DNA of 13,598 bases from Paracoccaceae bacterium. Lineage in GTDB: Bacteria; Pseudomonadota; Alphaproteobacteria; Rhodobacterales; Rhodobacteraceae. The translations under genes and the position numbers were made by a program. The DNA is taken from positions 1 through 13,598 of the forward strand of contig JALQUQ010000034.1 of the NCBI GenBank assembly GCA_023263735.1. Reading direction: 5' to 3'. A model generated the notes under the pieces. That model was not told the DNA's origin and did not search any database. It saw nothing but the letters and a program-made list of their open reading frames with translations. This document shows, piece after piece, positions 1 to 13,459 of this stretch; position 1 is the first letter of the stretch, and each line of letters starts with the position of its first letter.

Positions 1-1
1 G

Positions 2-100
2 GGCGATCCGGCGATGCATGCGCATCTCTTCGAGTTCGACACGGTGCATGTGCGTTGGCAGGCAGAGTTTGCACATGACGCGGACAGCATCACCATCGAC
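2..100 (+). pseudogene. gap: Internal fragment of glyceraldehyde-3-phosphate dehydrogenase, joined to foreign sequence
   Basis: The second frame from the left edge reads as about 33 residues resembling GAPDH residues ~35-70, the end of the Rossmann NAD-binding part. The core [10 protein letters not shown] aligns with the family's KYDSTHGRF segment, and the following ADSITID aligns with the beta strand before the conserved GK. The usual glycine after the histidine is valine here. The enzyme oxidises glyceraldehyde-3-phosphate in glycolysis and gluconeogenesis. The N-terminus would lie left of the window. After about base 100 the homology stops, and the frame ends at TGA (128-130) after unrelated residues. 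From base 100 a different frame is a guanylate kinase C-terminus, so this is a sequence join and not a natural gene end. The identification rests on recognising a short motif run by eye. Confidence 0.5.
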
Positions 101-194: not shown

Positions 195-398
195 ATGGCC
201 CGAATCACCGTCGAAGATTGCCTCGAAAAAATCCCCAATCGCTTTCAATTGGTTTTGGCTGCCACCTATCGCGCTCGGATGCTGAGCCAAGGCCACACCG
301 CCAAGCTCGAAAGCAAAAACAAGCCTGGCGTGACCGCCCTTCGCGAAATTGCGGCCGGTCATGTGGGTCTTGAAATGCTGAAAAAAGTCCCCGGTTGA
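195..398 (+). CDS. rpoZ: RNA polymerase omega subunit (betaproteobacterial type)
   Basis: This 67-residue protein begins [17 protein letters not shown], the invariant start of omega, and has the ALREIAAG helix at about residues 48-55. Omega chaperones the beta-prime subunit into RNA polymerase. The ATG at 195 is chosen because the omega N-terminus begins exactly there; the frame is open upstream to base 18, but that part has no omega-like residues. The short length and the ending [10 protein letters not shown] are typical of Comamonadaceae-like betaproteobacteria. Alphaproteobacterial omegas are usually over 100 residues with an acidic tail, so this gene does not fit the alphaproteobacterial genes further right. 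It lies 8 bases after the gmk end and is followed by a clear terminator. Confidence 0.95.
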
Positions 399-511: not shown

Positions 512-2680
512 ATGACGACTTCCTCATTGCCTCCCACCGAGATGGATTCAGCGGCACAGGCTGCTGCGGCCAGCTTCCAAAGTCTGGTGGATCAGCTCGG
601 CTACATGAGCAGCGAGGATGTGGAGTTGGTGCGCCAAGCCTACCGACTGGCCGATGAAGCCCACCTTGGCGTCACGCGCAAAAGTGGGGAGCCCTACATC
701 ACCCACCCCATTGCAGTGGCCGTTCAATGTGCCCAGTGGCAACTCGATTCGCAGGCCATCATGGCCGCGTTGTTGCACGATGTGATTGAAGACACGGGGA
801 TCACCAAGGGCGAGCTTTTGGAGCGGTTTGGGCCCAGCGTGGCCGATTTGGTCGACGGCCTCACCAAGCTCGACAAGCTCAACTTCAACACCAAAGAAGA
901 AGGCCAATCCGAGTCGTTCAGAAAAATGCTGCTGGCCATGGCGCAGGACGTGCGCGTGATTCTGGTCAAGTTGGCCGACCGTTGGCACAACATGCGCACC
1001 CTGGGCAGCATGGCTTCGCATCGGCGCAAAGCCATCAGTGCCGAAACGCTGGAGGTGTATGCCCCCATTGCCAACCGGCTCGGCTTGAATCACGCCTACC
1101 GCGAGTTGCAAGAGTTATCGTTTCAGCACCTGAACCCTTGGCGGCATCAGGTGCTGGAAAAGGCAGTGCTCAGGGCCCGCAAGCGTCGCAGCGATTTGAT
1201 GCGCGTGGTGCAAGAGTCCGTCGAAAAGGTGTTTGGCCAAGCGGGCATCACCGTTGGCATTGAATTTCGCGAAAAAACCCTCTACTCCATCTATAAAAAG
1301 ATGGATAGCAAACACCTCAGCTTTGCGCAGGTGACCGACATATACGGCTTTCGCCTGATCGTGCCCAGTCTCATCGATTGCTACACCGCCATGGGCCACC
1401 TGCACCAAATGTACAAACCGGTGCCAGGCAAGTTCAAAGACCACATAGCCATTCCCAAGGTCAATGGCTATCAGTCGCTGCACACCACCGTGGTTGGGCC
1501 TGCTGGGGTCAACATCGAATTTCAAATGCGCACCGAAGAAATGCATCGCGTGGCCGAGGCCGGGGTGGCGGCGCATTGGTCCTATCGCGAAGGCGTGCGC
1601 GCGCAGAACCCCTTTGCCGTTGATCCGGGCCGCTGGATCGCGCAACTGACCGAACGGCTGGATGAAGACGATCACGACGAGTTTCTCGAAAACGTCAAAC
1701 TCGAGATGTATTCGGATCAGGTCTTCTGCTTTACGCCGAAGGGCGATGTGATCCAGCTTCCGCGCGGGGCCACCCCTTTGGATTTCGCCTATGCCATCCA
1801 CACCCGGATCGGCAATGGCACCGTTTCCGCCAAGGTCGACGGCATTCGCGTGCCGCTGTGGACGCGGTTGAAGAACGGTCAGTCGGTTGAAATCATCACG
1901 GCCGAAGGGCAGCGCCCACAGTCAAGCTGGATCGATATCGTCGCGACCGGTCGGTCAAAGGCCGCCATCCGCAAATCCTTGCGTGAAGAAGATCGGGGCC
2001 GGTTCATCAAGCTTGGGCAGGAATTGGCCCGGGCCGCATTCGAACATGTGGGCAAGAAGTGTTCTGAAAAGGCACTTCGCACTGCGGCCAAGATTTTGGG
2101 GATTCCCGACGAGTTCGAAGTTCTGGCACGGATCGGCTCGGCGGACCTGACCGCGCGGCGTGTGGTCGAGGCGGTCTATCCCGAATTGTCGCGCGCGGAT
2201 TTGCCGGTGGTGGATGCCGCCCGTCCGGTCGTTGGTCTGACGGATGAGCAGGTTTTCAAACGTGCCCCGTGCTGCCAACCTCTGCCGGGTGAGCGGATCG
2301 TTGGCATCACCTATCGCGGCAAGGGAATCGTGGCCCATGCCATCGATTGCCCTGCTTTGGCCGAATTTGAAGAGCAGACCGAGCGTTGGGTCGATCTGTC
2401 TTGGCATTCCGGGCGGCATGCGGCGGTGCATACGGTCAGCTTTGATCTGACCATCGCCAATGATGCCGGGGTTCTGGGGCGGATCTGCACATTGATCGGC
2501 GAGCAAAAGGCCAATATCTCGGACCTGACCTTCACCGATCGAAAGCCAGACTTTTACCGGTTGCTGATTGATGTCGATCTGCGCGATGTTGAACATCTGC
2601 ACATGGTTATGACCGCGTTGGAGGCCGAGACCGATGTTGCACAGGTGGAGCGACACCGGAATTTGGAGCGGAAGCCCTGA
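512..2680 (+). CDS. spoT: Bifunctional (p)ppGpp synthetase/hydrolase, beta/alpha chimera
   Basis: A full-length 722-residue RSH enzyme that makes and degrades the alarmone (p)ppGpp. The HD hydrolase domain comes first: His65 in the THP motif, His89-Asp90 in LLHDVIEDT, and LADRWHN at 154-160. The synthetase domain has REKTLYSIYKKM (253-264), DIYGFRLIV (276-284) and Glu336. Then come a TGS domain (about 401-465) and a C-terminal ACT domain (about 641-715). Both active sites look intact. Residues 1 to about 345 resemble betaproteobacterial SpoT. From about residue 357 (SYREGVRAQNPFAVDP onward) the protein is Rhodobacterales-like. The change falls in the conserved MHRVAEAGVAAHW block (bases 1541-1579) without breaking the frame. 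The 5' half goes with the betaproteobacterial rpoZ upstream and the 3' half with the alphaproteobacterial genes downstream. RSH identity is certain; whether this exact gene exists in one genome is doubtful. Confidence 0.93.
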   Translation: MTTSSLPPTEMDSAAQAAAASFQSLVDQLGYMSSEDVELVRQAYRLADEAHLGVTRKSGEPYITHPIAVAVQCAQWQLDSQAIMAALLHDVIEDTGITKGELLERFGPSVADLVDGLTKLDKLNFNTKEEGQSESFRKMLLAMAQDVRVILVKLADRWHNMRTLGSMASHRRKAISAETLEVYAPIANRLGLNHAYRELQELSFQHLNPWRHQVLEKAVLRARKRRSDLMRVVQESVEKVFGQAGITVGIEFREKTLYSIYKKMDSKHLSFAQVTDIYGFRLIVPSLIDCYTAMGHLHQMYKPVPGKFKDHIAIPKVNGYQSLHTTVVGPAGVNIEFQMRTEEMHRVAEAGVAAHWSYREGVRAQNPFAVDPGRWIAQLTERLDEDDHDEFLENVKLEMYSDQVFCFTPKGDVIQLPRGATPLDFAYAIHTRIGNGTVSAKVDGIRVPLWTRLKNGQSVEIITAEGQRPQSSWIDIVATGRSKAAIRKSLREEDRGRFIKLGQELARAAFEHVGKKCSEKALRTAAKILGIPDEFEVLARIGSADLTARRVVEAVYPELSRADLPVVDAARPVVGLTDEQVFKRAPCCQPLPGERIVGITYRGKGIVAHAIDCPALAEFEEQTERWVDLSWHSGRHAAVHTVSFDLTIANDAGVLGRICTLIGEQKANISDLTFTDRKPDFYRLLIDVDLRDVEHLHMVMTALEAETDVAQVERHRNLERKP

Positions 2681-2718
2681 TGTGATGTCGGGGACGAAAG
2701 GGGAGAGGGGCCGGACGG

Positions 2719-3399
2719 GTGGTATTCAGACGGCGTAACAAGCGCACGGCGACCGAATGGATGCGGGAGTCGGTGTACCCCCGTGGTGGTTGGCGCCGAG
2801 CGGCGCTGTACGTCTGGCGCAGGGTGACGCGGTTGCCCGATCCCCCGCATCGAATCGCTCGTGGCGTTTTCGCTGGCATCTTCATTTGCTTCACCCCGCT
2901 CTTTGGGTTGCACCTGTTTTTGGCCGCTTTGCTGGCGCTGATCATTCGCGGCAATGTGGTGGCGGCGCTGCTGGCAACGCTTGTGGGCAATCCGCTGACC
3001 TTTCCCTTCATCGCCGTCTTGTCTGTGGAATTGGGGCACCTGATTCTGCGCACCGGGGTCGAAGGGGTGCCGGCCAGTCAAATCCTGTCAGCCTTTGCCG
3101 AGGCGGGGGCTGAGCTGTGGTCAAACATCTGGGCGATCTTTGGCCCCGATCATCCGCAATGGTATCACCTGAAACACTTCTACTTTGGCCTGTTCCATCC
3201 CTATCTGATTGGCGGGTTGGGGCCGGGGGTCGTTTCGGGGTTGGTGGGCTATTACGTCAGTTTGCCGATGATTTCGGCCTATCAGAAACTGCGCATCAAA
3301 CGGCGGCGCGACCGGGCCGAAAAGTTGCGGGCGCGTGCTGCTGAACGGCTCCGCCATCCCATCGGTCTGGCAGAAAAAGAAGAAAGCGGAACACCGTGA
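2719..3399 (+). CDS. DUF2062 inner-membrane protein (first of a tandem pair)
   Basis: A 226-residue protein of the DUF2062 family, whose biochemical role is unknown. After a basic N-terminus it carries the family signature LPDPPHRIARGVFAG (39-53). Hydrophobic segments follow at about 50-77 and 79-110, the second including GNPLTFPF, and another lies near 165-195 (HPYLIGGLGPG). The tail is highly basic and probably cytoplasmic. GTG at 2719 is taken as the start because a strong purine-rich ribosome site (GGGGAGAGG, about 2700-2708) precedes it and the residues align from position 1 with the next gene. It starts 38 bases after spoT, so the two are probably cotranscribed; DUF2062 genes are commonly found beside RelA/SpoT in Rhodobacterales. 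I cannot assign a molecular function. Confidence 0.88.
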   Translation: MVFRRRNKRTATEWMRESVYPRGGWRRAALYVWRRVTRLPDPPHRIARGVFAGIFICFTPLFGLHLFLAALLALIIRGNVVAALLATLVGNPLTFPFIAVLSVELGHLILRTGVEGVPASQILSAFAEAGAELWSNIWAIFGPDHPQWYHLKHFYFGLFHPYLIGGLGPGVVSGLVGYYVSLPMISAYQKLRIKRRRDRAEKLRARAAERLRHPIGLAEKEESGTP

Positions 3400-3459
3400 A
3401 TTTACCACGGCGCCCCTTGTCGCTTGGATCGGTTCAGACGATTTAGGCGGGGCGTGCGG

Positions 3460-3495
3460 TTTGATGCCATCAAGGTGCCATCAAACGTGATCACG
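3460..3495. promoter_or_regulatory. Hairpin plus palindrome in the gap between the DUF2062 genes
   Basis: The 162-base gap between the two DUF2062 genes contains an inverted repeat, TTTGATG (3460-3466) with CATCAAA (3479-3485). Its inner arms CATC and GGTG can also pair past one C-C mismatch. Immediately next to it is a perfect 10-bp palindrome, CGTGATCACG (3486-3495). There is no T-run, so a simple terminator is unlikely. An operator, or a structured leader for the second gene (start about 3562), is possible. No regulator can be named from this sequence. Confidence 0.35.
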
Positions 3496-3561
3496 ATCGG
3501 CAAGGCTTGATGACAGTCTTTGCCGAAAGCGTCGGGGTTTGCCACAGGATCGAGGCAGCAA

Positions 3562-4224
3562 GTGGTCTTTAAACGCCGCAAGCCCAAAAGTTGGGGGCTT
3601 TGGTTGCGCGAGATGGTTTACCCGACGGGTGGGTTTCGCCGCGCTGTGACCTATGTCGTGCACCGCATGCGCCGTTTACCCGACAAACCACACCGGATCG
3701 CACGGGGCGTCTTTGCCGGGTGCCTGATCGGTTTCCTTCCGCTGCCGGGTCTGCAATTCGTGGGCGCGGCAGTTCTGGCTTGGCTGATGCGCGGCAATAT
3801 TTTTGCGGCTCTGCTGGGCACGTTCAACTCGAACCCCGTGACCACGCCGTTCTTCGCGATGGGGGCCATCGCGCTTGGCCATTGGATGTTGGACATCCAC
3901 ACGCCCCTGACGCCCGAAATGATCGGCGACGCCTTTGCGCAGGCGGGCATCGATCTTTGGCACAATGTCATCGCCTTGTTCACGCCCGAACGCATGCATT
4001 GGCAGGGCCTGATGCAATTCTGGTCTGATATCTATGTGCCTTATTTCATTGGCGCTTTGATCCCCGGCACGGTCTTGAGCGCGGGGTTCTATTATCTGAC
4101 GATTCCGATTGTGCGGGCTTATCAGCATACCCGCGCAGCCAAGGCCAAAGAGCGGGGCGAACGCCGTCGCCATCTGCGCAAAACGGCCCAACAGACCAAA
4201 CCGCACAAAGCCGAAGGCGAATAG
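3562..4224 (+). CDS. DUF2062 inner-membrane protein (second of a tandem pair)
   Basis: A 220-residue paralogue of the preceding gene. Counting by hand, 47 of the first 80 positions are identical with no gaps, including LPDxPHRIARGVFAG (39-53) and the RGN at 77-79. The membrane segments fall in the same places, and the tail is again rich in Lys and Arg. The frame is open back to an ATG at 3520, but the GTG at 3562 is preferred: GAGG (3552-3555) sits about 6 bases upstream, and alignment with the paralogue starts exactly there. Function is unknown; family membership and membrane location are what the sequence supports. A role linked to SpoT or to the lipid and export genes downstream would be inferred from position only. 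The pair probably arose by tandem duplication. Confidence 0.85.
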   Translation: MVFKRRKPKSWGLWLREMVYPTGGFRRAVTYVVHRMRRLPDKPHRIARGVFAGCLIGFLPLPGLQFVGAAVLAWLMRGNIFAALLGTFNSNPVTTPFFAMGAIALGHWMLDIHTPLTPEMIGDAFAQAGIDLWHNVIALFTPERMHWQGLMQFWSDIYVPYFIGALIPGTVLSAGFYYLTIPIVRAYQHTRAAKAKERGERRRHLRKTAQQTKPHKAEGE

Positions 4225-4304
4225 TCAGACTTTGCCCATTATTTCCTTTGTCCGCCAAGGCTTCGGCAGTAGCGTCAGGCGAGCATGCCTAGGGAGGGTT
4301 GAGG

Positions 4305-4757
4305 ATGTTCGGCAAGTTTACCTGCGCGGCTGTGGCGGTTCTGGCGATCAATCCGCTGACCGCGTTCGCGCAGTCGGTCAGCGAATGCGATTGGCGGGCG
4401 TCGTCCGAGGTTTTGGCCGAGCCGTGGGAGTCGAACACGCGCACCTTCGCCAATGGGCAGATTCGGGTGGCTGTGATCGACACCGTCGAACCGGCCGCGG
4501 CATCGTTTCATCTGTTGGTTCTCTCTCCGCCCTATGACGAGTTGGGCAGTCGGCAATGCCGCATCGTTTCGCTGGAGGAGGGGTTTGGCTTTGCCGGATT
4601 CGATCTTTCGCAGGCCGTGGCCAACTATGATCCGTCGCGCGGTCTGACGGTGCAGGCCCCCGTCACGATCTGGTCGGATGGGGACCAGTATTATGAGCGT
4701 TGGTTGGCGGTCACGATCAATTCGGCGACCGGTGACGTTACGGGGTGGGTCCAGTAA
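4305..4757 (+). CDS. Small exported protein of unknown function
   Basis: A 150-residue protein with a clear Sec signal peptide: Lys4, a hydrophobic run at about 5-19, and an Ala-Phe-Ala cleavage site at 20-22, leaving a mature protein that starts at Gln23. The ATG at 4305 is supported by GGGAGG (4292-4297) seven bases upstream; a TTG at 4299 is in frame but too close to that site. The mature part is about 128 residues, acidic, Trp- and Tyr-rich near the end ([12 protein letters not shown]), with two cysteines (28 and 85) that could form a periplasmic disulfide. I do not recognise a family. It ends 19 bases before acpS, so the two are probably cotranscribed, although no functional link to acyl carrier protein activation is evident. 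Confidence 0.75.
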
Positions 4758-4776
4758 ACAGGCTTGGGCGCCGCGC

Positions 4777-5214
4777 ATGATCCTTGGCATTGGAACCGAT
4801 CTGGCGAATATCGACCGCATTCAGGGGGTGCTGGATCGGTTTGGCGACCGTTTCAAGAACCGGGTGTTTACCGCCCGGGAACAGCGCAAGGCGCAAAGCC
4901 GCCCAAGGGCCGAAGCCGCAACCTATGCCAAACGGTGGGCCGCCAAAGAGGCGTGTTCCAAGGCGCTTGGCACCGGGTTGCGCATGGGCATCGCCTGGAA
5001 GGACATGGCCGTCAGCAATCTGCCCACAGGGCAGCCGGTCATGCATCTGACAGGATGGGCGGCCGAGCGCTTGGCCGCCATGACTCCGCCGGGTCATGAG
5101 GCGGTTGTTCATGTCAGTTTGACGGATGATCACCCTTGGGCACAGGCCTATGTGGTGATCGAGGCGCGACCCCTGCACGCGGCTGTGACAGGCGCTGATG
5201 TGCGGTTCGCTTGA
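4777..5214 (+). CDS. acpS: Holo-[acyl-carrier-protein] synthase
   Basis: This 145-residue enzyme transfers 4'-phosphopantetheine from CoA to the serine of acyl carrier protein, which activates fatty acid synthesis in the cytoplasm. It has both signature motifs: IGTDL at 5-9 with metal-binding Asp8, and [14 protein letters not shown] (54-67) with Glu58. The ATG at 4777 is chosen because AcpS proteins begin with this [13 protein letters not shown] sequence; the frame is open further upstream but overlaps the preceding gene. The length is slightly above the usual 120-135 residues because of a C-terminal tail of about 12 residues. A hairpin follows the stop codon, and lepB starts 57 bases on, the normal order in Rhodobacterales. 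Confidence 0.96.
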
Positions 5215-5228
5215 CTAATTGGCGATGG

Positions 5229-5252
5229 GGGCGCATGAAGCGCCCAACTTTT
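5229..5252 (+). terminator. Weak terminator-like hairpin between acpS and lepB
   Basis: GGGCGC (5229-5234) and GCGCCC (5240-5245) form a perfect 6-bp GC stem with an ATGAA loop. Four T's follow after AAC (5249-5252). The stem is short and the T-run is offset, so partial termination or transcript 3'-end stabilisation is more likely than a full stop; lepB could still be reached by readthrough. Confidence 0.5.
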
Positions 5253-5271
5253 ACAGGCAACAGGGCGAACA

Positions 5272-6078
5272 ATGTCAGGTTTTTCTAAATCCTCGGGCGG
5301 ATCAAAGTCTGAAGGCGGGATTGTCGAACTGATCAAGACTGTGGTGTATGCCCTGTTGATTGCTGGCGTGTTTCGGACGCTGTTCTTTCAGCCGTTCTGG
5401 ATTCCGTCGGGCAGTATGAAAGACACCCTGTTGATCGGCGATTTTGTTTTCGTGAACAAGATGGCCTATGGCTATTCCAAATATTCCTGCCCCTTTGCCC
5501 TGTGCCCCTTTAGCGGCCGTATCCTGTTTTCCGAACCCGAGCGGGGCGATGTGGTGGTGTTCAGCCATCCGGTCCATGGGCAGGATTTCATCAAGCGTCT
5601 GATCGGTCTGCCGGGCGATACGGTGCAGATGAAAAATGGCGTGCTGTTTCTGAACGGCCAAGAGGTGAAACAGGAACCGGCAGGCGTCTTCGAGGAACCC
5701 TACGAAGCGCAGGGCCCGATGGGTTATGCCCCGCGCTGTGCCAACGATCCGGTCGGGTTCAACGGTGTCTGCCAAAAGGAACGTTCGATCGAAACCCTGC
5801 CCGAAGGACGCCAGCATGCGATCCTGAACATCGTGAACAACGGTCCGGGCGACAATACCGATATGTTTACGGTGCCCGAAGGTCATTACTTCTTTATGGG
5901 CGACAACCGTGACAACAGCCAGGACAGCCGCTTTATTCAGGCGAATGGCGGCGTGGGCATGGTGCCGGCAGATCGTTTGATCGGTCGCGCAGACCGGATT
6001 ATGTTCTCGTTCCGGGGGACGTCGATGTTCCAATTCTGGACTTGGCGCTCTGACCGGTATTTCAAGAAAGTGGAGTGA
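5272..6078 (+). CDS. lepB: Signal peptidase I
   Basis: A 268-residue inner-membrane serine protease that cuts signal peptides from exported proteins on the periplasmic side. One N-terminal membrane anchor (about 17-38) is followed by box B, IPSGSMKDTLL, with nucleophile Ser48. The general base Lys108 lies in DFIKRLIGLPGD, and box E, GDNRDNSQDSR, is at 210-220. All catalytic parts are present, and the length fits the alphaproteobacterial form with a single anchor. The ATG at 5272 gives the short Ser- and Gly-rich cytoplasmic leader usual in this group. The ribosome site upstream is weak (AGGG near 5262). It is the first gene of the tight lepB-rnc-era run; rnc begins 9 bases after its stop. Confidence 0.97.
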   Translation: MSGFSKSSGGSKSEGGIVELIKTVVYALLIAGVFRTLFFQPFWIPSGSMKDTLLIGDFVFVNKMAYGYSKYSCPFALCPFSGRILFSEPERGDVVVFSHPVHGQDFIKRLIGLPGDTVQMKNGVLFLNGQEVKQEPAGVFEEPYEAQGPMGYAPRCANDPVGFNGVCQKERSIETLPEGRQHAILNIVNNGPGDNTDMFTVPEGHYFFMGDNRDNSQDSRFIQANGGVGMVPADRLIGRADRIMFSFRGTSMFQFWTWRSDRYFKKVE

Positions 6079-6087
6079 CGTCGCCAC

Positions 6088-6774
6088 ATGCGTCTTTCGG
6101 CAGAGCTGAAGGCTTTTGAGGCCCAGATCGGATACACCTTTCAGCGCAAAGAGCTGTTGGTGCGTGCCGTCACACATGCGTCGCTCAGTTCCGCGACACG
6201 GCCTGATAACCAGCGGCTGGAGTTTCTGGGGGACCGTGTTCTTGGGCTCATCATCGCGCAGGCGATGATGGCCGCCGACAAATCGGCATCAGAAGGGCAG
6301 TTGGCGCCCCGGTTCAATGCGTTGGTGCGCAAGGAAACCTGTGCCGAGGTGGCCCGGTCGATCGGATTGGGCGAAGTCATGAAAATGGGCCGGTCGGAAA
6401 TGATGACCGGGGGGCGCCGCAAGGATGCCCTGCTGGGCGATGCGATGGAGGCCCTGATCGCCGCGGTCTTTCTGGATTCGGGGTTTGACGAGGCGCGCAG
6501 CTTTGTGCTGCGGCTGTGGGGCGAACGGGTGGACGAGGCCGAGGCCCGCATCCATAACCCCAAATCCGCCCTGCAAGAGCGGGCGCAGGCCTTGGGTCTG
6601 GGATTGCCGAGCTATATCGAAGTGGCCCGCTCGGGGCCGGATCATGAACCGCTGTTTACCATCGAAGCCCGTCTGGAAGACGGTCGCACCGCGACCGCGA
6701 CGGGCAAGGGGAAACGGGCGACCGAAGCTATAGCGGCCGAAGCTTTGCTGGCCAGAATGGAAAAAGAACAATGA
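6088..6774 (+). CDS. rnc: Ribonuclease III
   Basis: This 228-residue endonuclease cleaves double-stranded RNA, including the 30S rRNA precursor. The catalytic domain carries the signature [13 protein letters not shown] (41-53), with Glu45 and Asp49 matching E. coli Glu41 and Asp45. GDAMEAL supplies Asp118 and Glu121, equivalent to Asp114 and Glu117. The residue matching E. coli Glu38 is Gln42. A C-terminal double-stranded-RNA-binding domain starts at NPKSALQE (157-164) and ends with the [16 protein letters not shown] helix. The length is normal. The ATG at 6088 follows GGAG in the last lepB codons. The stop codon overlaps the era start as ATGA, so translation of the two is probably coupled. 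Confidence 0.97.
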
Positions 6775-7688
6775 CGGATCGCACGCGTGCAGGATTTGTT
6801 GCGCTGATCGGTGAACCCAATGCCGGCAAATCGACGCTGCTCAACCGAATGGTGGGCGCCAAGGTGTCTATCGTCACGCACAAGGTCCAGACGACCCGCG
6901 CCCGCATTCGGGGCGTTGCCATGGAGGGCAACACGCAGATCGTCTTTGTGGACACGCCCGGATTGTTCAAACCGCGCCGCCGGCTGGACCGCGCCATGGT
7001 CAAGGCCGCTTGGGGCGGCGCGGCGGATGCCGACATCGTGGTGTTGCTGATCGAGGCCCATCGCGGCCTGACCGAGGGGACGCAAGCCATCATCGACCGT
7101 CTGGCCGAGGAAATGCCCAAGGGCAAGCCTGTCGCCTTGGCGATCAACAAGATCGACCGGGTCAAGGCCGAGGTTCTGTTGGCCCTGACCCAAAAGATGA
7201 ACGATACCTTCCCCTTTGCCAAAACCTTCATGATCTCGGCCGAGCGAGGATACGGCGTCGATGATCTGCGCGAATGGCTGGGGGCAGAATTGCCCGAGGG
7301 TCCGTGGTACTATCCCGAAGACCAAATCGCAGATCTGCCGATGCGCATGATCGCGGCCGAGATGACCCGCGAAAAGCTGACGCTGCGTCTTCATGAAGAG
7401 CTGCCCTATCAACTGACCGTGGAAACGGAAAAGTGGGAGGATCGGCCCGACGGAACCACGCGGATCGATCAGGTGATCTATGTCGCGCGCGAAGGTCACA
7501 AGGGGATTTTGCTGGGCCACAAGGGCGAGACGATCAAACAGATCGGCAGTCAGGCCCGGGCTGAAATCTCGGCCTTTCTGGATCGCACCGTCCATCTGTT
7601 CCTGACCGTCAAGGTTCGCGAAAACTGGCTGGACGAAGCAGAGCGCTATTCCGAGATGGGTCTTGATTTCAAGGACGGCGACGCCTGA
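6771..7688 (+). CDS. era: GTPase Era, 30S ribosome maturation
   Basis: A 305-residue GTPase that binds the 3' end of 16S rRNA during assembly of the small ribosomal subunit. All G motifs are visible: G1 GEPNAGKST (14-22), the TTR switch I (41-43), G3 DTPG (61-64), G4 NKID (126-129) and G5 SAE (156-158). The C-terminal KH RNA-binding domain has [11 protein letters not shown] at 249-259. The length is that of a complete Era. The start overlaps the rnc stop by four bases (ATGA), the usual rnc-era arrangement, which couples processing of pre-rRNA with its assembly. A DUF1491 gene follows after 12 bases. Confidence 0.98.
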
Positions 7689-7700
7689 TCGCTGCCGCCC

Positions 7701-8030
7701 ATGCGTCTGACCACTGATTTCTGGGTGCGGGCCTATATGCGCCGTCTGGCCTTGGCCGATATCCCTGCTTTTGTCGTCGCCCATGGGGACGATACGGCGG
7801 GGGCGGTCTTGGTCAAGGTCAGCACTCTGGACGGCAAAGCCTGTCTGTATCAGCGCAGCTTTGATCTGATGGAAAACACCCGGTCTTGGTCAGTGCTGAG
7901 CCAGGGTGAAGAGGCGGCGGTTGACGCCTCTATTCAAAAGCAGCGTGGATTTGACCGCGATTTGTGGGTGATCGAGGTCGAGGATCGCCAGGGGCGGAGC
8001 CTGTTGGACGAACCCGGCCTTTCGTCGTGA
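7701..8030 (+). CDS. DUF1491 family protein
   Basis: A 109-residue soluble protein beginning MRLTTDFWVRAYMRR, the typical start of the DUF1491 family, followed by AFVVAHGDDTAGAVLVKV and a C-terminal WVIEVEDRQGRSLLDE segment. The family is small, known mainly from alphaproteobacteria, and has no established function. It has no signal peptide or membrane segment. It lies 12 bases after era on the same strand, so it is probably the last gene of the lepB-rnc-era transcript; this position near era is common in Rhodobacterales. It ends 9 bases before the end of a convergent minus-strand gene, with no hairpin visible between them. Confidence 0.88.
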   Translation: MRLTTDFWVRAYMRRLALADIPAFVVAHGDDTAGAVLVKVSTLDGKACLYQRSFDLMENTRSWSVLSQGEEAAVDASIQKQRGFDRDLWVIEVEDRQGRSLLDEPGLSS

Positions 8031-8039
8031 TCCAAGGGG

Positions 8040-8645
8040 TCAGAGGCCAAGGCGGCGTGTCAAACGGCCAAGCCCCCAGATCACTGCCCCGGCCAAACCA
8101 AAGACGATGACGAGGCCCACGATATTCAGGCCGATGCGCAGCGCCCCAAACCGCGCGACATCCAGAAAGAAATAGGGGTAGCTGCCGGTCATCCCCCCCC
8201 GGATCAGGGCATAGAGGCAATAGGCCACCGGCCAGATCAGCCACAGCGGCATGCGGCGCAGCGGTTCATCCCGCGGGCCAAAGCTCATCCACCACAAGAG
8301 GGTCGCCACCGGAACGCCAAGGTGAAAGCCAAAGTCGGTCCACCAGTTCAGTCCCTGCAAGGGGTCGGGCGGCGCAAGCAGGGTTTGATAGATCAGACAG
8401 ACCATGGTGATATTGATCACGCCCGTCATATGCCAGCCGGGCCCGGCCCTGTGGCCAAAACCTTCGGACAAAAGAACCCCAGCGACCAGAGCATTGGTCA
8501 GAATGGTGAAATAACGCGCCATATCCCACAGGCGGGGGCCCCACGGCTCCAGTCCCGGCTTGCTGCCGTTCAGGTAAAACTGCCCCAAGATCGAGGCGAT
8601 GGCCGCAAAGGCGATGATTAGGGCAAGGGGGCGTTTCAGCGTCAT
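8040..8645 (-). CDS. Pr6Pr-type integral membrane protein
   Basis: A 201-residue, strongly hydrophobic protein with about six membrane segments. Features typical of Pr6Pr-family membrane proteins are RYFTILTN early, HLGVPVATLLWW in the middle, and YALIRGGMTGSYPYFFLDV towards the C-terminus. No enzymatic role is established that I can rely on. The frame is open to 8819, but the ATG at 8643-8645 (MTLKRPLALII) is chosen because membrane homology begins there and a longer form would run into recO. No clear ribosome site precedes it. It sits on the opposite strand between DUF1491 and recO, convergent with the first and divergent from the second, and looks like an insertion into the housekeeping cluster. 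Confidence 0.8.
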   Translation of the reverse strand: MTLKRPLALIIAFAAIASILGQFYLNGSKPGLEPWGPRLWDMARYFTILTNALVAGVLLSEGFGHRAGPGWHMTGVINITMVCLIYQTLLAPPDPLQGLNWWTDFGFHLGVPVATLLWWMSFGPRDEPLRRMPLWLIWPVAYCLYALIRGGMTGSYPYFFLDVARFGALRIGLNIVGLVIVFGLAGAVIWGLGRLTRRLGL

Positions 8646-8723
8646 GGCATCAGCAAAGCCAAGCGCGATCAGCTTTGCAAGTGTTCCCTTGCGTTGGATG
8701 GGGGCAACACGGATAGTCCGCCC

Positions 8724-9479
8724 ATGGAATGGAAAGATACGGGTCTGCTTTTGTCGGTGCGGCCGCACGGCGAAGGCTCGGCCATTATTGAGGCACTGAC
8801 AAAAGATCACGGCCGACATCTGGGCGTGGTCCGGGGGGGATCATCGCGCAAGATGGCCCCCATTTTGCAGGTCGGTTCCGTGCTTTCGCTGGAGTGGCGT
8901 GCGCGTTTGCAAGACCACATGGGCAGCTTTCGCGCCGAACCTGTGAAAAGCCATACCCATTTGATGCAAGATCCTTTGGCCCTGTCGGCCTTGGTTTCCT
9001 TGTGCGCCCTGCTGAAAATCGCCCTGCCCGAGCGTGAGGCGCATCCGCAGATGTATGCCCGGTCGCTTGCGTTGATCGGTGCGCTGCAAACCGATCCGCT
9101 GGATTGGATGGCCGATTATGTGCGGTGGGAAATGGTGCTGCTGGAAGAGTTGGGCTTTGGGCTGGATCTGGGGCGCTGCGCCGTGACCGGATCGCGAGAG
9201 GATCTGATCTATGTCAGTCCAAAATCGGGCCGATCGGTCAGCCGACAGGGGGCGGGTGACTGGGCCGATCGTCTGCTGCCCTTGTCTCCGCTGTTGCTGG
9301 GGCAGGGGCGGGCGACGCTCAGGGACCTGCAAGATGGGTTGCGCGTGACGGGGCACTTCTTGCAGCGGGAATTGGCCGAACACCTGCACGCGGGGCATCT
9401 GCCCGAAGCGCGGCACCGCATGGTTGCGCGTATGGAGAAGGCGTTGCACGGAAAACTTCCGCCAAACTCGACACCCTAA
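8724..9479 (+). CDS. recO: DNA repair protein RecO
   Basis: A 251-residue protein that works with RecR to load RecA onto SSB-coated single-stranded DNA in the RecF pathway. The N-terminal OB fold starts MEWKDTGLLLSVRPHGE, and GVVRGGSSRK lies at 34-43. The helical C-terminal half contains RCAVTGSREDLIYVSPKSG (151-169). Only Cys152 of the zinc-finger cysteines of classical RecO is kept, which matches my recollection of alphaproteobacterial RecO. The ATG at 8724 is chosen because the conserved start is exactly there; an in-frame ATG at 8694 would add ten unrelated residues. It is separated from the era cluster by a minus-strand gene, so it needs its own promoter in 8646-8723, where I see no strong consensus. 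Confidence 0.93.
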   Translation: MEWKDTGLLLSVRPHGEGSAIIEALTKDHGRHLGVVRGGSSRKMAPILQVGSVLSLEWRARLQDHMGSFRAEPVKSHTHLMQDPLALSALVSLCALLKIALPEREAHPQMYARSLALIGALQTDPLDWMADYVRWEMVLLEELGFGLDLGRCAVTGSREDLIYVSPKSGRSVSRQGAGDWADRLLPLSPLLLGQGRATLRDLQDGLRVTGHFLQRELAEHLHAGHLPEARHRMVARMEKALHGKLPPNSTP

Positions 9480-9539
9480 AGTCGCAATCAGGCCAGCCGC
9501 TGCGAACTTGCAGTGGTTTGACTGGGGCAGAGAGACGCC

Positions 9540-10766
9540 ATGGCCAGATATATTCCCCTGTTCTTGAAACATGCCCCCAAGGCCCGCGTTCGGGACTTTG
9601 CGGTTCTTGCCGGGCTAGAGGCGACGACCCGCTCGCTCTTGCTGATCGTGGCCCCGCTAACCGTCTATGACGCCTTGCAGGATTCCGAAAAGTTCTCCGC
9701 GATCTATTTTGTGGTCGGAATCGTGTCATTGGGCTGGGGGCTGATGGTGCCATGGGGAACGCGGTTCATTCCCCGGCGCTGGATGTACAGCCTTGGCTGT
9801 GGGCTTTACATGATCGGCCATCTGTTGGGGGGCAGCGGGATTGCGGCGCTTGTTCCCCTCTGTGCGCTGTTTCTGGCCATGGCTACGGCCACGACCTTTG
9901 TCTGCCTGAATGCCTATATTCTGGATTTTATCGAACGTCAGAACCTTGGCCGCGTGCAATCGATGCAGATGTTTTTTGCGGCGATCCCTTGGTGCACGGG
10001 GCCGTTGACGGGGGTTTGGCTGCGCGAGATCTGGCAGCCCTTGCCCTTTATCGTGGCCGGCGTTGGGGCCGCTGTCCTGTTGGCCGTGTTCTGGGTCTTG
10101 CGATTGGGCAATGGCAAACAGGTTGCGCGGGCCAAAGGGCCAGCGGCCTTTCCCTTGGCCTATCTGGCGCGGTTTGCCGTTCAGCCCCGGCTTTTGGCAG
10201 GGTGGAGCTTTGCCGTGATCCGGTCGTGCGGCTGGTGGACCTATTTCCTGTATCTGCCGGTTTTTTGCATTGAAAACGGATTGGGCGACAAGGTTGGGGC
10301 GACGGCGGTGTCAATTTCCAACGCCTTTCTGTTTACCGCCCCGATCATCTTTGCCTTTTCGCGCAAATTGGGGGTGCGGCGGTCGTTGCGGCTGTCCTTT
10401 GCCTTGGGTGGCGGATTTTGGGCGGCGGCGGCGGCGCTGTCTGAGGCGCCGGTGATGTCGGTGGCGTCGGTGATGCTGGCGTCGGTGTTTCTGGTGGTGC
10501 TGGATGTCATCGGGGGTCTGCCGTTCATGATGGCCGTCCGCCCGTCTGAACGGACCGAGATGTCCGCCGTTTATTCCAGCTTTCGCGACGTCTCGGGCAT
10601 TTTGACGCCCGGCTTTGCGTGGTTGGTCTTGCAGGTGGCGCCGCTGCCCGGCGTCTTTGCCGTGATGGCCGTGCTGATGGCGATCTGTTTCCTGATCGCC
10701 GGGGCCCTGCATCCAAGATTGGGCGTCGTGCGCCCCTCACGCGGGGGGCTGGTTCAAGAGCCCTGA
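9540..10766 (+). CDS. MFS-like membrane transporter
   Basis: A 408-residue protein with about 12 hydrophobic segments in two halves and a longer polar stretch (about 190-207) between them, the pattern of the major facilitator superfamily. A short loop, GTRFIPRRW, near residue 78 resembles a degenerate loop-2/3 motif of that superfamily. It therefore probably moves a small solute across the inner membrane by secondary transport; the substrate is unknown. The ATG at 9540 follows a purine-rich GGCAGAGAG. It begins 60 bases after recO and ends 64 bases before the glutathionylspermidine-synthase-like gene on the same strand. A role in moving a polyamine or thiol conjugate would be guessed from position only. 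Confidence 0.8.
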   Translation: MARYIPLFLKHAPKARVRDFAVLAGLEATTRSLLLIVAPLTVYDALQDSEKFSAIYFVVGIVSLGWGLMVPWGTRFIPRRWMYSLGCGLYMIGHLLGGSGIAALVPLCALFLAMATATTFVCLNAYILDFIERQNLGRVQSMQMFFAAIPWCTGPLTGVWLREIWQPLPFIVAGVGAAVLLAVFWVLRLGNGKQVARAKGPAAFPLAYLARFAVQPRLLAGWSFAVIRSCGWWTYFLYLPVFCIENGLGDKVGATAVSISNAFLFTAPIIFAFSRKLGVRRSLRLSFALGGGFWAAAAALSEAPVMSVASVMLASVFLVVLDVIGGLPFMMAVRPSERTEMSAVYSSFRDVSGILTPGFAWLVLQVAPLPGVFAVMAVLMAICFLIAGALHPRLGVVRPSRGGLVQEP

Positions 10767-12604: not shown

Positions 12605-13459
12605 TCAGGCTTTGGCTGGAACCGTGTCAAAGTCGCTGGCGTCATGGCGCTCGCGCAGTTGTTCCCACGGCTCGCCCCAGGTCCGGTTGACCTTGCCGCC
12701 ACGAATGACGGCCGGGCGGGCGTCGATCCGTTCGGCCCATGCCAACAGGTTTTTGTAGCTGGTCACGTTCAGGAATTCGCCCGCGTTGTACGACCGGCCA
12801 AGAACCGTGCGCCCATACCAAGCCCAGATCGCGATATCCGCGATCGTATATTGGCCGCCTGCCATCCATTCATTCTTGGCCAGATGCTGGTCAAGAACAT
12901 CCATTTGCCGTTTGGCTTCCATGGTAAAACGGTTGATCGGATATTCCATCTTAAACGGCGCATAGGCGTAGAAGTGGCCAAAACCGCCGCCCAGATAGGG
13001 GGCGCTGCCCATTTGCCAGAACAGCCACGACAGGCATTCGGTGCGGCCTGCAAGATCGGTCGGGATCAGCGCGCCGAATTTTTCGGCCAGATACAGCAGG
13101 ATATTGCCGGATTCGAAAATCCGCTGCGGCGGGTTGACCGAATGGTCCATCATCGCCGGAATTTTCGAATTCGGGTTCACATCGACAAAGCCCGAACCGA
13201 ACTGGTCGCCTTTGCCAATGTCGATCAGCCAAGCGTCATATTCGGCGCCGGTGATCCCCATGGCCAAAAGCTCTTCCAGCATCACCGAAATCTTGACGCC
13301 ATTCGGCGTGGCCAGCGAATAAAGCTGCAGGGGGTGCTTGCCGACAGGCAATTCCTTTTCGTGCTGGGCACCGGCGGTTGGGCGGTTCGTTCCGGCCCAG
13401 GCACCGCCATTTTCCTTGTCCCAAGTCCAAACCTTGGGCGGGGTGTAAGTCTCGGTCAT
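12605..13459 (-). CDS. yghU: YghU-type glutathione transferase / disulfide-bond oxidoreductase
   Basis: A 284-residue glutathione-S-transferase-fold protein of the nu class. An N-terminal extension of about 43 residues (with WTWDKENGGAWAGTNRP, 11-27) is typical of YghU. It is followed by a thioredoxin-like domain with the TPNG motif (51-54), where the Thr and Asn contact glutathione, then NPNSKIPAM (95-103) and ESG (116-118). The helical C-terminal domain starts near 135 and includes YTIADIAIWAW. E. coli YghU reduces disulfides with bound glutathione. The ATG (13457-13459) has AAGGG about 6 bases upstream on the minus strand. It converges with the ygiC-ygiB pair; in E. coli yghU neighbours the gss glutathionylspermidine gene, so the association with this chemistry recurs. 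Confidence 0.93.
   Translation of the reverse strand: MTETYTPPKVWTWDKENGGAWAGTNRPTAGAQHEKELPVGKHPLQLYSLATPNGVKISVMLEELLAMGITGAEYDAWLIDIGKGDQFGSGFVDVNPNSKIPAMMDHSVNPPQRIFESGNILLYLAEKFGALIPTDLAGRTECLSWLFWQMGSAPYLGGGFGHFYAYAPFKMEYPINRFTMEAKRQMDVLDQHLAKNEWMAGGQYTIADIAIWAWYGRTVLGRSYNAGEFLNVTSYKNLLAWAERIDARPAVIRGGKVNRTWGEPWEQLRERHDASDFDTVPAKA

What the first reader, a model, noticed from the sequence alone, without database searches (positions are those of the whole stretch)
1541..1600. spoT switches from a betaproteobacterial to a Rhodobacterales sequence inside one reading frame
Residues 1 to about 345 resemble Comamonadaceae-type SpoT (for example LGYMSSEDVELVRQAYRLAD and TEEMHRVAEAG). Residues from about 357 on resemble Rhodobacterales RelA/SpoT (SYREGVRAQNPFAVDP). 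The change falls in the conserved MHRVAEAGVAAHW block, where the two DNAs are probably nearly identical. Upstream neighbours are betaproteobacterial and downstream neighbours alphaproteobacterial, so the switch is regional. An assembly or amplification chimera bridged by the conserved block is the best explanation; homologous recombination between phyla-level classes is the exciting but less likely one.
Basis: partly seen in the sequence, partly recalled or inferred. Interest (0 to 1): 0.75.

Follow-up and report, generated by a model that had tools for sequence, protein, structure and literature searches.

The report
Chimeric contig splitting one spoT gene
The gene that seems to change from one bacterial class to another halfway through is almost certainly a patchwork that arose in sequencing or assembling a mixed community, because a single-origin version of the gene is known and pieces matching both of its ends lie in this same assembly.

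Summary
At sites that separate 82 distinct alphaproteobacterial spoT genes from 29 distinct betaproteobacterial ones, the window has the beta base at 105, the alpha base at 5 and neither at 7 of 117 sites left of 1550, and the alpha base at 115 of 115 right of 1579. The switch falls in 1550-1579, residues 347-356.

I read it as a chimeric contig of a fragmented bin (740 contigs, 85.77% complete). Residues 347-722 match two all-alpha proteins at 376 of 376 (P0121) and 375 of 376 (P0122). Contig C34 of the same bin carries the genes found upstream of spoT in relatives, plus spoT residues 1-147 identical to P0122; it then jumps to another lineage and stops.

There are more pieces than reported: a Rhodobacteraceae-type gap fragment (1-100), a beta gmk tail with rpoZ, and spoT residues 253-326 matching a different betaproteobacterium. 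None of 308 listed relatives combines a beta left with an alpha right of the junction.

Assembler or wet-lab cause needs the reads, which were not available.

The parts
1..100 (+). fragment of an alphaproteobacterial gap (GAPDH) gene, reading frame 2; perhaps the overhang of a chimeric read at the contig end
   Evidence: Pfam Gp_dh_N E 4.3e-4, 21 bits, below its cut-off of 31.7; 81% to gap in G238 and 80% in G226, both same family; no second copy in the own genome
100..186 (+). betaproteobacterial gmk (guanylate kinase) 3' end, frame 1, stop codon 184-186
   Evidence: same C-terminus in beta loci; the full gene in L113 is TIGR03263 guanylate kinase, 233 bits, and sits just before rpoZ
195..398 (+). 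betaproteobacterial rpoZ
   Evidence: TIGR00690 rpoZ E 5.7e-17; up to 81% DNA identity to genomes of family f43
512..1267 (+). spoT residues 1-252, beta parent A
   Evidence: 97-99% identical to P0001 by segment
1268..1489 (+). spoT residues 253-326, identical to beta parent B proteins such as P0004; the return to parent A lies somewhere in residues 302-326
   Evidence: P0004 74 of 74, P0001 61 of 74 over 253-326; alignment
1415..1579 (+). spoT residues 302-356, identical to beta parent A
   Evidence: P0001 55 of 55, P0004 49 of 55
1550..1579 (+). beta-to-alpha crossover interval of 30 nt (VAEAGVAAHW)
   Evidence: no diagnostic site inside; alpha relative L102 identical to the window over 1550-1603
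1580..2680 (+). spoT residues 357-722, Rhodobacterales
   Evidence: P0121 366 of 366 and P0122 365 of 366; 115 of 115 diagnostic sites alpha
2681..10660 (+). ordinary Rhodobacteraceae neighbourhood (two DUF2062-like genes, acpS, lepB, rnc, era, recO and others)
   Evidence: order kept in 7 of 8 genus loci to 9309 or beyond and in 5 of 8 to about 10660; the eighth, L144, is a short contig; NCBIfam names

Best explanation
C277 is a chimeric metagenome contig. Its right 12 kb is the spoT-to-recO region of a Rhodobacteraceae genome. The beta part looks patched in the same way, and the outer end carries a scrap of gap. Shown: the switch, its position, single-origin relatives of both halves, and an alpha 5' end on C34. 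Inferred: that the source is a mixed community, and that shared k-mers or template switching made the joins. The frame stays open because homologous codons were joined in register.
For: Single-origin relatives of both halves. C34 of the same bin keeps the gene order found upstream of spoT in the four loci shown (of 88 compared), carries spoT residues 1-147 identical to P0122, then switches lineage and ends at residue 403. Diagnostic sites 105:5, then 0:115. Crossover interval free of diagnostic sites. The left flank ends in a gap scrap instead of returning to the alpha locus. Of 308 relatives listed, none is beta-like at residues 280-346 and alpha-like at 357-380. The best 80 of 585 relatives in genome contigs all match the all-alpha P0121 almost end to end. 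Fragmented bin.
Against: The beta parents' DNA was not found: the closest of 399 sampled family genomes is 75% over about 950 bases, and none of the 35 beta loci in hand has the exact 30-mer of the crossover; the 7 printed differ at 3 to 5 of 30 bases. Two joins have little apparent overlap: gap|gmk about 1 base, and residues 253-256 about 14 bases if P0001 stands for parent A; k-mer bridging explains those poorly. P0121 and P0122 come from unnamed ENA contigs and could themselves be imperfect. Native residues 148-346 were not found in the bin. No reads.
Confidence: 0.96

Rival explanations
1. True homologous recombination moved a betaproteobacterial rpoZ and spoT 5' part into a Rhodobacteraceae genome and made a working hybrid SpoT.
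For: The open frame is intact and the domains are complete. The crossover lies in a conserved block. The order rpoZ-spoT is found in both lineages.
Against: Native-type upstream genes and spoT residues 1-147 are on C34. The left flank does not return to the alpha locus. The beta part matches two beta sources. No listed relative has the junction.
Confidence: 0.015
2. A special case of the best explanation: the molecules were chimeric before assembly. Template switching or ligation in amplification or library preparation joined fragments of different species, and the assembler followed those reads.
For: Several joins lie within 1.6 kb, some with almost no shared bases. The gap join lies 100 bases from the contig end, which could be one read length (the real read length is unknown).
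Against: The alpha-beta join and the return to beta A lie in long conserved stretches, as k-mer bridging would give. No reads to tell.
Confidence: 0.3
3. The beta A / beta B / beta A pattern inside residues 1-356 is natural recombination between related betaproteobacteria, and only the join to alpha and the gap scrap are artefacts.
For: Recombination between relatives is plausible. The apparent overlap at residues 253-256 is short.
Against: Of 308 listed proteins, none over 70% identical in residues 1-256 exceeds 79% in 257-303. The contig is chimeric elsewhere.
Confidence: 0.25

Closest known systems
Inter-species chimeric contigs of metagenome assemblies (PMC3100316 and PMC7299287; passages of each read)
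   Same: Sequence of more than one genome in a contig. PMC7299287 says that graphs of related species are linked by shared k-mers, or by sequencing errors, and that this can give chimeric contigs. PMC3100316 finds in simulated data that contigs mixing different species are noticeable, and that with Newbler and Velvet the mixed species share only the family or a deeper rank.
   Different: Here the parents belong to different classes, the join preserves an open frame, and at least one join has almost no overlap.
Bifunctional RelA/SpoT (Rsh) proteins
   Same: HD, RelA_SpoT, TGS, RelA_AH_RIS and ACT domains.
   Different: The two halves have different closest relatives, and none of 308 listed relatives has this combination.

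Membership tests
Chimeric metagenome contig | the two sides have different closest relatives, with a sharp switch | tested here: met
Chimeric metagenome contig | single-origin versions of both sides exist | tested here: met
   P0001, 327 of 345 over residues 1-345; P0121, 376 of 376 over 347-722
Chimeric metagenome contig | the expected missing part of the host's gene lies elsewhere in the same assembly | tested here: met
   in part: C34 has upstream genes and spoT residues 1-147 identical to P0122; native residues 148-346 were not found
Chimeric metagenome contig | the join lies in a stretch identical in both parents | tested here: inconclusive
   30 nt without diagnostic sites; exact 30-mer in one alpha relative (G410) and in none of 35 beta loci; the beta parent's DNA was not found
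Chimeric metagenome contig | coverage step or no spanning read pairs at the join | not testable with these tools
   no reads available
Recombinant (horizontally acquired) allele | the donor segment is flanked on both sides by the host locus | tested here: not met
   the left flank is a gap scrap, not the alpha genes seen on C34; the contig ends there
Recombinant (horizontally acquired) allele | same junction seen in another genome or sample | tested here: not met
   in none of 308 listed proteins; only the best 120 of 7999 scored candidates were listed per search
Bifunctional RelA/SpoT protein | HD, synthetase, TGS and ACT domains | tested here: met
   Pfam hits, but pieced together from different parents

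The most novel reading that the evidence does not exclude
A minority strain really carries a working SpoT whose hydrolase-synthetase half is betaproteobacterial and whose regulatory half is rhodobacterial, made by homologous recombination across classes at a 30-base conserved block.
Probability: 0.015. Interest if true: 0.75.

Novelty: not a real feature. Interest (0 to 1): 0.07.

Why it matters
It is a clear example of how a conserved block in a housekeeping gene can give an in-frame, annotation-passing hybrid protein in a genome bin. Taken at face value it would be filed as cross-class recombination. The practical value is a warning: the first 1.58 kb of this contig, and C34 after about base 6563, should not be counted as this organism's sequence.

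Tried and rejected
Rejected: a normal gene of one lineage (105:5 against 0:115 diagnostic sites). Rejected: a beta genome carrying an alpha insert, since 1550 to about 10660 keeps the gene order of genus relatives.

Led nowhere: finding the beta parents' DNA. Closest of 399 genomes of family f43: 75% over about 950 bases, and 83% for 1268-1440. The gap fragment gave only a 22-base match in 1 of 15 other genomes of the genus, so its exact source is open. A literature search for recombination between distant bacteria gave nothing of use; only its listing was seen.

Limits: the diagnostic sites are defined from the same 111 references, so the lack of contrast in those is partly by construction. 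2 of 88 alpha loci gave no ORF by my filter, and sequences with identical C-terminal parts were collapsed (86 to 82 alpha, 35 to 29 beta). In one search only 21 of 25 alpha and 7 of 23 beta loci passed the motif filter and were printed. Segment identities use only the 308 proteins listed; one search uses the 120. The 80 loci are the best of 585, so they favour full-length matches.

On rechecking I corrected the gmk stop codon, the start of the second beta A stretch (residue 302) and the P0122 identity (365 of 366), and added the 30-mer test and the gmk family check.

Full report
What the window is. The window is the whole of contig C277, 13,598 bases, of a genome in 740 contigs totalling 3,202,843 bases, 85.77% complete with 2.8 contamination. 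I take it to be a metagenome bin; that is inferred from its fragmentation and its mixed contents.

The ORF 512-2680 encodes 722 residues with RelA/SpoT domains. Residues 1-345 have P0001 as best hit (95%, 740 aa); named hits further down include Limnohabitans, Ramlibacter and Curvibacter. Residues 357-722 are identical to P0121 (366 of 366) and match P0122 at 365 of 366. Both are 705-aa proteins from ENA contigs without names; named hits below them include Pseudotabrizicola, Thioclava and Paracoccaceae. That these genera belong to Comamonadaceae and Rhodobacterales is recalled, not looked up. Aligned over their length, P0121 and P0122 are alpha-type and P0001 is beta-type throughout.

Where the switch is. 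I extracted spoT from 86 of 88 alpha loci and 35 of 35 beta loci (82 and 29 distinct) and marked sites fixed at 90% or more to different bases in the two groups. Left of 1550 the window has the beta base at 105, the alpha base at 5 and neither at 7 of 117 sites. At 1550-1579 there is no such site. At 1580-2677 it has the alpha base at 115 of 115. At the protein level the counts are 64 beta, 3 alpha, 7 neither for residues 1-345, and 49 alpha, 0 beta, 2 neither for 357-722. The largest left-right contrast among the 111 references is 0.06, which is partly by construction. An alpha relative of the same genus, L102 from G410, is identical to the window over 1550-1603; the 7 beta rows printed differ from the window at 3 to 5 of the 30 bases. 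Among all loci in hand other than the window's own, only G410 holds the exact 30-mer.

Why I call it an artefact. First, single-origin versions exist: P0121 equals the window over residues 347-722 at 376 of 376, and P0001 matches residues 1-345 at 327 of 345. Second, the same bin holds contig C34, 7,333 bases. Its genes keep the order found upstream of spoT in the four loci shown of 88 compared; it includes an rpoZ, and its last ORF is the 5' part of an alpha spoT. Residues 1-147 of that ORF are identical to P0122. From residue 148 on, none of the 120 alpha proteins exceeds 88% in any segment, and P0122 is at 78-81%. So C34 looks chimeric too, at the conserved RLHNMRTI block, and it stops at residue 403. 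Searching the bin with P0001 and with P0121 finds only C277 and C34. Pieces matching both ends of one all-alpha gene are thus in the bin, on two contigs, while residues 148-346 are missing. Third, the left side of C277 does not return to the alpha locus. Bases 1-100 are a fragment of gap (Pfam Gp_dh_N E 4.3e-4, below its cut-off), 81% identical to a Rhodobacteraceae gap gene, and they butt against the tail of a betaproteobacterial gmk with about one shared base. Fourth, the beta part is mixed: P0001 matches at 97-99% in segments of residues 1-256, 72% in 257-303 and 55 of 55 in 302-356 (the last two overlap because residues 302 and 303 are shared), while P0004 matches residues 253-326 at 74 of 74. 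Fifth, of the 308 proteins listed by the three searches, none is beta-like at 280-346 and alpha-like at 357-380: 185 pass the first test, and the best of them reaches 46% in the second. Each search lists only the best 120 of 7999 scored candidates.

The right side is ordinary. From 1550 onward the window keeps the order of genus relatives: 7 of 8 loci to 9309 or beyond and 5 of 8 to about 10660; the eighth, L144, is a short contig with its last match at 4144. The best 80 of 585 relatives in genome contigs all match the all-alpha P0121 nearly end to end. In the relatives search 43 of 61 genomes match 1541-2700, among them 14 of the 15 others of the same genus.

How the joins arose. The alpha-beta join and the return from beta B to beta A (residues 302-326) lie in conserved stretches, so an assembler could cross them by shared k-mers, a cause described in PMC7299287 (passages read). 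In simulated metagenomes contigs mixing different species are noticeable even in simple communities, and with Newbler and Velvet the mixed species share only the family or a deeper rank (PMC3100316, passages read). The gap|gmk join, and perhaps the join at residues 253-256, have too little overlap for this and suggest chimeric reads. The figure of about 14 bases at the latter uses P0001 as stand-in; P0002 shows that a beta A relative can share residues 253-264 with beta B, which would lengthen the overlap. Reads are needed to divide the cause between assembler and bench.

What stays open. The beta parents' DNA was not found among 399 sampled genomes of family f43, so near-identity across the block is shown on the alpha side only. 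True cross-class recombination is not formally excluded without reads, but it would have to coexist with native-type upstream genes and a spoT start on C34, a gap scrap at the other end and a two-source donor. I put it at 1.5%.

Noticed in passing
L087 (contig C34 of the same genome), about 6563: A second apparent chimeric switch in the same gene: spoT residues 1-147 are identical to P0122, the rest fits another Rhodobacteraceae lineage.
   Followed up: yes
window 1-100: Fragment of an alphaproteobacterial gap gene joined to a betaproteobacterial gmk tail with about one shared base.
   Followed up: partly
P0121 against P0122: 9 of their 11 differences lie in residues 79-92, which suggests another local mosaic or a strain difference.
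   Followed up: no
window 2719-3399 and 3520-4224: Two related genes in tandem whose best NCBIfam match is the BspA model, far below its cut-off (107.8 and 77.3 bits against 300); they look like ordinary DUF2062 membrane proteins (name recalled) and lie at the same place in genus relatives.
   Followed up: partly
window 12605-13459 (minus strand): Glutathione-dependent disulfide-bond oxidoreductase (509.7 bits against a cut-off of 325), beyond the stretch shown to keep the order of relatives.
   Followed up: no
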